Assembly: GCA_012728815.1 (NCBI GenBank)
Contig: JAAYEI010000060.1
Span: forward strand, 1 to 64,000
Direction of reading: 5' to 3'
From: Clostridiales bacterium
GTDB lineage: Bacteria > Bacillota > Clostridia > Christensenellales > Aristaeellaceae
Length of the DNA: 64,000 bases
Below, in pieces: positions 8,746 to 13,360 of the stretch. The notes under the pieces were generated by a model. That model was not told the origin of the DNA. It worked only from the letters and a program-made list of their open reading frames with translations, and searched no databases. How positions within the stretch are numbered: the first letter of the stretch is position 1; every line of letters begins with the position of its first letter. The position numbers and the translations under genes were made by a program.

Positions 8746-10913
8746 TGACCAAGCTTGAAGTCAAGAACCTTCAAATCTCATTCCGCACCAACAACGGCGC
8801 GGTGCGCGCGGTGCGTGACATCTCCTTCTCCCTGGAGGAAGGGCAGACCCTGGCCATTGTGGGGGAGTCGGGCAGCGGCAAGTCGGTCACGGCGCGTGCC
8901 ATCATGGGCATCCTGGCCGGCAACGCCATGGTGGACAACGGGGAAATCATCTATGACGGGCAGGACCTGCTCAAGATCAGCGAGGATGACTTCCACACCC
9001 TGCGGGGCCACCGCCTGGCCATGATTTTCCAGGACCCCCTCTCCGCCCTGAACCCGGTGATGCGCATCGGGCGCCAGCTGACAGAAGCCATGGTGCTCAA
9101 CAACCGGGAACGCAGGCGGGATGGGCGGCGCCGCTACAAAAAGATGACCGCGCTGCTGGAAAAGAACGCCATTCAGGCCTACCAGCAGGAGGGACAGGAC
9201 AGCAGCGCGCGCATCCGCGAGAAAATGGGCACGTTCAAGCGCTTCATTGACGCAGGCGTGCGCCTGCGCACCCACTACAACAACAGCCACGACGCCCTGC
9301 TGGAGGCCAAGGATAGCATCAACCAGCTGCGGCTGGAACTCAAGCGCAGGGACGAGCGGGCGGCGCGGGACATCTTTGCGCGGCTGGCCAAGGCAGCCGC
9401 CACGGGGCGCCACCCCTACCTGATCGCGGAGGAAGACACGGCCTACAAACAGCTGCTTGACAGCGCGAACCACTTTGGCCGTGCCTTCCACCTGCGCGAC
9501 AGCGAGGCTGCGCTCAACCTGCTGGAAGCGCTGGAAACGCGCATCAACACCGCCCTGAACCGGGAATTGCCCAGCTTCCACGCCATCGCCTACGGCATGC
9601 AAGCGGGGGCCGATACGCTGCCCACAGGCGAGCTGTCCGCCATCAACCAGCAGGTTGAACAGCACCTGCAGGCAAACTTCATGGAAGGCTTCCTGGTGGA
9701 TGTGCAAAAGGCGCTGGCCCACTCCGCCAGGCAATCCCAGCAGGCGCAGCAGGAGGCGCTGTCCCAGCTGAGGGAAGCGCTGCCCGTGTTTGAAAAGGAT
9801 GCCCTTGTTGAAAGTGAAGTGCGGGCCGCCTTCACCCGCACCGCTGCAGCGGTGGACCGGGCCATTGACCCCATGGAGCTGAACAAGGACAACCTGGCCT
9901 ATGTGTACCGCTCCAGCATGAAGACCAACATTGACCGCTACTTCCGGGGGCTGAAGACCAACCCCAAGGAGATGGCGCGCCACCACAGGGACACCCAGAA
10001 GCGCCAGCAGCTGCTGGACAGAAACAAGCCAGCGCTGCAGGTGGTGCCCATGAACCTGGTGGACACGGACAAGGCCCGGGACAACCTGGCCCGGGATGTG
10101 CGGGCGTTGATTGCCCGGTATGAGGAGCGGCTGGCCAACCCGGTCCAGCCAAGCCTGCACAGCGCCCAGGCCCTGGTGGATTACCTGATGCGGGCCGCTG
10201 GCGATTACGGCTACAAGCTGTCCAAGGCCATGGCGCGGCACCGCTCCATCGAGCTGATGGACGAGGTGGGCATCCCGGAGCCCCACAAGCGCTTCCGGCA
10301 GTATCCCTTTGAGTTCTCCGGTGGCATGCGCCAGCGCATCGTGATTGCCATCGCGCTGTCGGCCAACCCGGACATCCTGATTTGTGATGAGCCCACCACC
10401 GCCCTTGATGTGACCATCCAGGGCCAGATTCTGGAGCTGATCAACAACCTGAAGAAGCAGCGCAACCTGTCGGTCATCTTTATCACCCATGACCTGGGTG
10501 TGGTGGCCAACATGGCTGACAGCATCGCTGTGATGTACGCGGGCAAGATCGTGGAGTATGGCACTGCTGAGGAGGTGTTCTACAGCCCGGCACACCCCTA
10601 CACCTGGGCGCTGCTCTCCTCGGTGCCAGACCTTGAAACCAGGGAGAAGCTTGAAGCCATCCCGGGCACGCCGCCAAACATGATCATCCCGCCCAAGGGC
10701 GATGCCTTCGCCGCGCGCAACAACTACGCGCTGGCTTTGGATTTTGAGGAACAGCCGCCACTGTTCCGCATCACCGATACGCACTATGCCGCCACCTGGT
10801 TGCTGCACCCGGACGCGCCCAAGGTGGAATTGCCGGCCATCGTGCAGGAGCGCATCGACCGCATGCACCGGCGCACGCGTGAAACCACCACGGAAGGCAG
10901 GGATGTCCAATGA
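8745..10913 (+). CDS. Peptide ABC transporter ATPase, OppD type, with ~370-residue insertion
   Basis: Cytoplasmic ATPase of the importer. Walker A GESGSGKS is at 40-47 and the Q-loop glutamine at 96, but the signature FSGGMRQR appears only at 524-531, followed by Walker B (ILICDEPTTALD) and the H-loop (ITHD). In the family the Q-loop to signature distance is about 60-70 residues; here it is 428. The extra part (about 121-492) is rich in Ala, Arg, Gln, Leu and Glu, looks almost fully helical, and has no recognisable domain. It interrupts the helical subdomain that touches the permease. The C-terminus has an oligo_HPY-like region but lacks its usual cysteines. It overlaps the next gene by four bases. 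Confidence 0.9.
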   Translation: MTKLEVKNLQISFRTNNGAVRAVRDISFSLEEGQTLAIVGESGSGKSVTARAIMGILAGNAMVDNGEIIYDGQDLLKISEDDFHTLRGHRLAMIFQDPLSALNPVMRIGRQLTEAMVLNNRERRRDGRRRYKKMTALLEKNAIQAYQQEGQDSSARIREKMGTFKRFIDAGVRLRTHYNNSHDALLEAKDSINQLRLELKRRDERAARDIFARLAKAAATGRHPYLIAEEDTAYKQLLDSANHFGRAFHLRDSEAALNLLEALETRINTALNRELPSFHAIAYGMQAGADTLPTGELSAINQQVEQHLQANFMEGFLVDVQKALAHSARQSQQAQQEALSQLREALPVFEKDALVESEVRAAFTRTAAAVDRAIDPMELNKDNLAYVYRSSMKTNIDRYFRGLKTNPKEMARHHRDTQKRQQLLDRNKPALQVVPMNLVDTDKARDNLARDVRALIARYEERLANPVQPSLHSAQALVDYLMRAAGDYGYKLSKAMARHRSIELMDEVGIPEPHKRFRQYPFEFSGGMRQRIVIAIALSANPDILICDEPTTALDVTIQGQILELINNLKKQRNLSVIFITHDLGVVANMADSIAVMYAGKIVEYGTAEEVFYSPAHPYTWALLSSVPDLETREKLEAIPGTPPNMIIPPKGDAFAARNNYALALDFEEQPPLFRITDTHYAATWLLHPDAPKVELPAIVQERIDRMHRRTRETTTEGRDVQ

Positions 10914-13360: not shown

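What the first reader, a model, noticed from the sequence alone, without database searches (positions are those of the whole stretch)
10910..12090. OppF-type ATPase fused to a two-helix membrane anchor and ~320-residue outer domain
ATPase subunits of importers are soluble. Here the same polypeptide has a membrane helix (11-29), a long outer helical segment (30-350), a second helix (357-376) and then the ATPase. Such a chain could couple ATP hydrolysis directly to an extracytoplasmic event, such as contact with the binding protein or cell wall, as FtsEX-type systems do with separate proteins.
Basis: partly seen in the sequence, partly recalled or inferred. Interest (0 to 1): 0.78.

Follow-up and report, generated by a model that had tools for sequence, protein, structure and literature searches.

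The report
Membrane-crossing ATPase of peptide importer
In one family of bacteria the ATP-burning subunit of a peptide importer, a part that is normally soluble inside the cell, is fused in one gene to a module predicted to cross the membrane twice and put a roughly 300-residue helical domain of no matched family outside the cell, where it likely helps hold the peptide-catching protein at the importer.

Summary
Window 10910-13360 encodes one 816-residue OppF-type protein: a hydrophobic helix (about 9-29), a predicted outer all-helical domain (about 31-350), a second hydrophobic helix (about 357-376) and an ATPase with complete motifs (397-816). The module occurs in 40 of 300 genomes sampled from the family; order and class samples gave nothing else but one 64-residue match judged chance. 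It is under purifying selection, is modelled well (mean pLDDT 89) and has no significant Pfam or PDB match. It sits on two Opp lineages and probably moved between them. The operon belongs to a wider insert-bearing Opp type in which OppF is normally soluble. OppA is lipidated in many outside relatives (30 of 45 by pattern) but in almost none of the family (1 of 22). FtsEX-like coupling is untested; I favour a docking and retention platform for OppA, at modest confidence. A new variant of a known kind.

The parts
10910..13360 (+). oppF: 816-residue OppF-type ATPase with N-terminal membrane/outer module
10934..10996 (+). predicted membrane helix 1 (residues about 9-29; model helix 2-46)
   Evidence: hydropathy; models
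11000..11959 (+). predicted outer all-helical domain (residues about 31-350)
   Evidence: no significant Pfam or PDB match
11357..11416 (+). conserved Lys-containing loop with low pLDDT (residues 150-169); candidate contact site
11456..11485 (+). core of the most conserved stretch of the outer domain (residues 183-192, G-E-x-A-G turn)
11978..12037 (+). predicted membrane helix 2 (residues about 357-376; model helix 357-389)
12098..13357 (+). ABC ATPase, OppF type (residues 397-816): Walker A 435, Q-loop 599, signature 658, Walker B 677, H-loop 713
12326..12685 (+). cytoplasmic helical insert (about 110 residues, near 473-592) between Walker A and Q-loop, common in this Opp type
8745..10913 (+). 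oppD: 722-residue partner ATPase with a large insert (about 370 residues) between Q-loop and signature
7201..8745 (+). oppC permease with a long segment (about residues 85-275) between its first and second membrane helices
6236..7204 (+). oppB permease
3580..6084 (+). oppA peptide-binding protein (SBP_bac_5), signal peptide without lipobox pattern, net charge about -75
3646..3795 (+). extra segment (about 45 residues) after the OppA signal peptide, absent from the OppA of soluble-OppF operons read
13357..13764 (+). DUF3899 small membrane protein directly after oppF, as in many of the relatives mapped

Best explanation
This is an OppF-type ATPase of an oligopeptide ABC importer, fused in one reading frame to an N-terminal module that is predicted to cross the membrane twice and to place a helical domain of about 300 residues outside, where it likely acts as a fixed docking and retention platform for the peptide-binding protein OppA beside OppC. 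Shown by sequence: the fusion, the complete ATPase motifs, the gene order OppA-B-C-D-F-DUF3899, the recurrence of the fusion and the purifying selection on the outer part. Predicted: topology (N terminus in, outer domain out, ATPase in) and the all-helical fold. Inferred: in E. coli Dpp the F-type ATPase pairs with the C-type permease, so the outer domain would stand next to the long outer segment of OppC and near the OppA docking face; its conserved, Lys-containing, probably mobile loop (150-169) would touch the strongly acidic OppA, and the two helices would keep the ATPase on the membrane. In this picture the outer domain does not move with ATP hydrolysis; it raises the local concentration of a non-lipidated OppA and steadies its docking.
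For: Fusion conserved: 40 of 300 family genomes, own included, hold the module; 23 of 24 operons inspected have module and ATPase in one frame. Both hydrophobic helices in 22 of 22. Model of the module pLDDT 89.3. Most conserved outer stretches are about 176-199 and the loop 150-169, which has the lowest pLDDT block (56), as a binding site might show; the window's loop has three basic and no acidic residue. OppA net charge -58 to -85 in 16 of 16 fused operons read. The module is confined to a family whose OppA has mostly lost the lipobox: pattern in 1 of 16 full-length OppA of fused operons (L158, doubtful) and 0 of 6 of soluble ones, against 30 of 45 in outside loci; the genome has no Omp85 hit, so secreted OppA would need some form of retention. 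An OppA with an extra N-terminal segment co-occurs: 33 of 34 genomes with an OppA of about 60% identity or more also have the module; in the 34th (G183) the contig ends inside oppD. F-to-C pairing: passages of PMC12136057.
Against: OppA lacks the lipobox pattern in 6 of 6 soluble-OppF operons of the family too and is just as acidic there (-60 to -69, 6 of 6), so retention cannot require this module. Conversely 7 of the 40 module genomes have no OppA of the 60% kind at the cut-off used: in two (G071/L158, G215/L170) a neighbouring OppA of another kind (31-33% identity) is seen, L158's without the extra segment and L170's cut at its start; G166 has a contig-edge fragment at 60%; G074, G132, G151, G214 are unresolved. 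The co-occurrence is largely shared descent. Mirror-tree over 15 rows: partial correlation with the OppA segment 0.06, OppA core 0.14, OppC outer segment 0.12, none notable (653, 205 and 309 of 2000 permutations as high); only OppD stood out (0.43, 0 of 2000), which is intracellular. The outer domain as a whole is acidic, -7 to -60. No complex was modelled.
Confidence: 0.4

Rival explanations
1. ATP-driven coupling: nucleotide binding in OppF moves the membrane helices and swings the outer domain, for example to open OppA or gate the importer, in the manner of FtsEX or MacB but with ATPase and outer domain in one chain.
For: Short linker (seven residues) between the end of the TM2 helix at 389 and the first ATPase strand at 397 in the model, so ATPase motion could reach the helix.
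Against: No FtsX or MacB domain in the six opp-operon proteins; TM1 (30 codons), and TM2 with its linker in two of three pairs, have clearly higher dN/dS than the ATPase; soluble OppF is the rule in relatives. No direct test.
Confidence: 0.15
2. Assembly anchor: the useful part is the pair of helices, which keep OppF on the membrane and stabilise a complex that has lost the C-terminal iron-sulfur domain; the outer domain mainly caps the hairpin.
For: OppD has no Cys after the H-loop in 20 of 20 fused rows, and the window's OppF has none either; in E. coli Dpp the clusters are needed for assembly (passages of PMC12136057).
Against: Soluble-OppF relatives of the family also lack the cysteines (OppD 0 Cys in 6 of 7) and do without helices; a selected 300-residue outer domain is more than a cap needs.
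Confidence: 0.2
3. Surface contact or sensing: the outer domain binds the cell wall or an external ligand and tunes or places the importer, without touching OppA.
For: The conserved loop could bind anionic wall polymers; the outer module is the most divergent of eight operon parts compared (mean identity 31% against 73% for the ATPase); it probably moved to an operon with a different OppA.
Against: No wall-binding or sensor family matched at significance; conservation of the loop is consistent with any partner.
Confidence: 0.2
4. Artefact: assembly or gene-calling fusion of two separate genes.
For: G135 shows the gene in two overlapping frames (L161); cluster P0007 has a frame that ends soon after Walker A.
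Against: One frame in 23 of 24 operons from different assemblies; no stand-alone homologue among the scored proteins apart from the truncated P0007; dN/dS 0.22-0.27.
Confidence: 0.01

Closest known systems
E. coli OppF/DppF (PDB 8z21, 8z1v-8z1y)
   Different: Canonical OppF is soluble; here a module predicted to cross the membrane is added in front, plus a helical insert between Walker A and Q-loop, and the window's OppF has no Cys after the H-loop
Mollicutes OppF/OppD (NCBIfam NF043078, NF043079)
   Same: Best-scoring NCBIfam models for both ATPases
   Different: Scores 387.5 of 800 and 451.4 of 740 bits, below the curated cut-offs; the best matched stretch of OppF is the ATPase end (626-810)
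Insert-bearing Opp operons, mostly MAGs of Clostridia, Bacilli, Mollicutes and Treponema (L016-L075)
   Same: In most of them the same kind of OppD insert, OppC segment and OppF cytoplasmic insert
   Different: OppF without hydrophobic helices in 59 of 60; the exception L067 is built differently
FtsEX and MacB (recalled, not searched)
   Same: An ABC ATPase acting together with an extracytoplasmic domain
   Different: FtsE and FtsX are separate proteins and MacB has the ATPase first, then the membrane part; here the outer module precedes an importer-type ATPase

Membership tests
Peptide/nickel ABC importer ATPases (PF00005 + PF08352) | ABC_tran and oligo_HPY above Pfam gathering scores | tested here: met
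   106.1 of 25 and 31.7 of 27.1 bits
Peptide/nickel ABC importer ATPases (PF00005 + PF08352) | Complete Walker A, Q-loop, signature, Walker B, H-loop | tested here: met
   residues 435, 599, 658, 677, 713
Peptide/nickel ABC importer ATPases (PF00005 + PF08352) | Operon with SBP_bac_5 protein, two permeases and a second ATPase | tested here: met
Canonical OppF (E. coli type) | Soluble subunit without membrane helices (usual trait) | tested here: not met
   two hydrophobic helices in 22 of 22 fused genes examined
Canonical OppF (E. coli type) | NCBIfam equivalog NF011659 cut-off | tested here: not met
   303.1 of 540 bits
Canonical OppF (E. coli type) | C-terminal [4Fe-4S] cysteines as in E. coli DppD/DppF | tested here: not met
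   0 Cys after the H-loop in OppF and OppD of the window; ligands from passages of PMC12136057
Mollicutes OppF (NF043078) | curated cut-off 800 bits | tested here: not met
   387.5 bits, though the best-scoring model
FtsEX | FtsX-type permease with outer domain as partner | tested here: not met
   no FtsX-type Pfam match in six proteins of the operon
FtsEX | ATP hydrolysis drives an outer-domain movement | not testable with these tools
   needs biochemistry or cryo-EM
Any known fold for the outer domain | significant structural match in PDB or BFVD | tested here: inconclusive

The most novel reading that the evidence does not exclude
A portable ectodomain module turned an importer ATPase into a membrane-spanning subunit, so that a single chain links the ATP site directly to OppA outside: the importer's ATPase itself gates or loads its binding protein, an architecture that none of my paper searches showed for a type I importer.
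Probability: 0.2. Interest if true: 0.8.

Novelty: new variant of a known kind. Interest (0 to 1): 0.6.

Why it matters
Type I importers are drawn with a strict division of labour: binding protein outside, permeases in the membrane, ATPases inside. A conserved group of ATPases that would themselves reach the outside breaks that scheme, gives a natural handle on how the binding protein and the ATPases communicate, and adds a domain without a matched family. The probable move of the module between two Opp lineages suggests that it works as an add-on, so its effect could be read by comparing importers with and without it.

Tried and rejected
Separate-gene origin: no hit to the module in any other frame (90-100 residues or more) of the soluble-OppF operons. 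The protein searches returned fused proteins, the truncated P0007 and the contig-cut P0008; only the 7,998 and 7,997 candidates sharing most words were scored, and how the length limit counts for an alignment is unclear (proteins of 817 residues came back), so a short stand-alone copy could have been missed.

Wider spread: the order sample (396 genomes, own family partly included) and class sample (391) gave outside the family only G387, a 64-residue match (E 4.5e-4) in a 394-residue protein that I judge unrelated. The weak second hit in G204 is in an 811-residue frame that I judge unrelated.

OppA tether as sole purpose: weakened, because OppA of soluble-OppF operons in the family lacks the lipobox pattern too (6 of 6; 5 of 5). 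My first look covered 12 fused operons, 0 with the pattern; the wider check found L158 with a possible lipobox (1 of 16; six fused loci not counted for missing or short OppA). The pattern is strict: L067's OppA looks like a lipoprotein but is not counted, so 30 of 45 outside is a lower bound. Lgt is present (3 hits) and Omp85 absent in the genome. Of its six SBP_bac_5 proteins one has a possible lipobox (L147) and one an N-terminal helix plus coiled coil (L145).

Mirror-tree search for a partner: no support for OppA or OppC. Known fold or family: Foldseek PDB, VIA, BFVD, Pfam per member and PDB sequence profile all without significance (the best weak ones, DFF40 at 0.0027 in 3 of 31 members and STH1 at 0.042, judged chance). 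A first VIA search with the whole chain was filled by ATPases. A loop-charge pattern matched only 10 of 16 rows, not the window; the window's loop was then counted directly.

TM1 as a cleavable signal peptide: not excluded (small residues follow the helix in several relatives; no signal-peptide program at hand), but the model has one unbroken helix 2-46; the outer side of the domain would not change.

Papers: eight full-text searches listed nothing recognisable as an importer ATPase with its own membrane helices; I saw listings with the starts of abstracts, plus passages of PMC12136057 and PMC11466899. The library lacks most subscription papers.

Tree limits: the OppB+C+D tree used 48 rows: 20 fused, 7 soluble of the family, and 21 of the 60 outside loci, picked by hand; L126 (near copy of L127) and L136, L156, L157, L159-L161, L163, L164 were left out, most for missing genes. 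Both 48-row trees are of the quick kind; one outside row (L051) is long. The module tree used 22 rows, then 21 without the long row L160.

Full report
Observation. Window 10910-13360 is one open frame of 816 residues; its ATG overlaps the stop of oppD. Above cut-off Pfam finds only the ABC ATPase and the oligopeptide C-terminal region, both in the second half. The first 390 residues match no Pfam family at E 0.1. Two 19-residue hydropathy peaks lie at 9-27 and 357-375.

Surroundings. The gene is the fifth of an operon oppA-B-C-D-F followed by DUF3899. The operon is unusual throughout: OppD (722 residues) has a large insert between Q-loop and signature, OppF one between Walker A and Q-loop, and OppC about 190 residues between its first two membrane helices. 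In 59 of the 60 the best OppF-like frame has no hydrophobic helix. The best NCBIfam models are those of mycoplasma OppD and OppF, below their cut-offs. So the inserts are ordinary for this Opp type; the N-terminal module is not.

Recurrence. A first search found the module in 7 of 60 genomes, own included; a profile of seven found it in 40 of 300 genomes of the family, own included (11 of 120 good-quality ones; 15 of 50 genera). In the own genus 2 of 10 relatives have it. Of 24 operons inspected, 23 have module and ATPase in one frame; G135 has two overlapping frames. Order and class samples (396 and 391 genomes, own family partly included) gave nothing else but one 64-residue match judged chance. 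Protein searches gave fused proteins and one truncated one.

Selection and conserved site. dN/dS of the outer part is 0.22, 0.24 and 0.27 in three pairs, against 0.11, 0.08 and 0.17 for the ATPase (dS is near saturation in two pairs). The most conserved outer stretches are about 176-199 and the loop 150-169; the loop holds the lowest pLDDT block of the domain (56; the next block is 68, tied with 231-240). A loop both conserved and predicted mobile is a candidate contact site. The peptide importer DppB has a loop that is flexible until DppA is bound (passages of PMC12136057); this is an analogy only.

History. In a tree of OppB+C+D, 18 fused operons form one starred clade and two (L158, L170) lie within soluble-OppF operons; one clade for all 20 is rejected (p-AU 7e-5, quick tree); the ATPase tree also needs two changes. 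In the module tree these two sit beside L134, inside the main group (94/95, or 98/95 without the long row L160; the alternative has p-AU 0.0375; branches are long). The likeliest reading is that the module moved onto a second Opp lineage. One gain with several losses is not excluded.

Partner evidence. Fused operons of the main clade have an OppA with about 45 extra residues after the signal peptide. Of 34 genomes with an OppA of about 60% identity or more, 33 have the module; the 34th contig ends in oppD. Of the 40 module genomes 7 have no such OppA at the cut-off: G071 (L158) has one without the segment, G215 (L170) one of the same kind cut at its start, G166 a contig-edge fragment at 60%, four are unresolved. 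Two OppA genes with the segment (L156, L157) stand with no OppB-F on their stretches, in genomes not among the 40. The lipobox pattern is found in 1 of 16 OppA of fused operons, 0 of 6 of soluble ones in the family and 30 of 45 outside: the module is confined to a family that has mostly lost OppA lipidation, but soluble-OppF members lost it too. OppA is strongly acidic in both groups. Partial mirror-tree correlations with OppA and the OppC segment are weak; with OppD 0.43. So no partner is shown.

Interpretation. I commit to a docking and retention platform for OppA next to OppC (0.4). Topology and fold are predictions; the partner and the static mode of action are inferences. Anchoring of the ATPase (0.2), surface contact or sensing (0.2) and ATP-driven coupling (0.15) remain.

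Novelty. An importer ATPase predicted to span the membrane with an outer domain is a new variant of a known kind; my paper searches listed none, within an open-licence library. The passages seen of a B. subtilis structure survey describe extra NBD domains of importers as regulatory, on the NBDs or reaching into the cytosol (PMC11466899).

Noticed in passing
L067:11883-13625 (+): Another OppF, in a Clostridia MAG, has two hydrophobic helices about 90 residues apart inside the insert between Walker A and Q-loop: a different, apparently independent way for an OppF to gain a membrane hairpin. Its OppA looks like a lipoprotein.
   Followed up: partly
window 8745-10913; loci L016-L075: OppD of this Opp type mostly has no Cys after the H-loop (20 of 20 fused rows, 6 of 7 soluble rows of the family, 53 of 60 outside loci), so the C-terminal iron-sulfur cluster known from E. 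coli Dpp and M. tuberculosis OppD seems lost.
   Followed up: partly
OppA genes of the family (window 3580-6084 and loci): OppA lipidation seems largely lost in this family: lipobox pattern in 1 of 22 full-length OppA against 30 of 45 in outside loci. How the cells keep OppA is open.
   Followed up: partly
L156:2728-5220, L157:2794-5217: Single oppA genes with the extra N-terminal segment and no OppB-F in the fetched stretch, in genomes not among the 40 with the OppF module.
   Followed up: no
L145:886-2736 (own genome, contig C51): A peptide-binding protein with an N-terminal hydrophobic helix followed by a coiled-coil-like stretch instead of a usual signal peptide.
   Followed up: no
L143, L162, L165, L015: In L143, L162 and L165 the fused OppF is longer (889-931 residues), with extra acidic low-complexity residues in the outer domain of L143; L015 shows an additional hydrophobic stretch before TM2.
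   Followed up: no
L142:2-997, L144:1-1849, L162:1-2409, L166:14987-16000: Another Opp/Dpp-type ATPase gene or part of an operon lies directly upstream of the fused operon in these relatives.
   Followed up: no
L161:3331-5792 (G135): The fused gene shows as two overlapping frames, by assembly error or decay.
   Followed up: no
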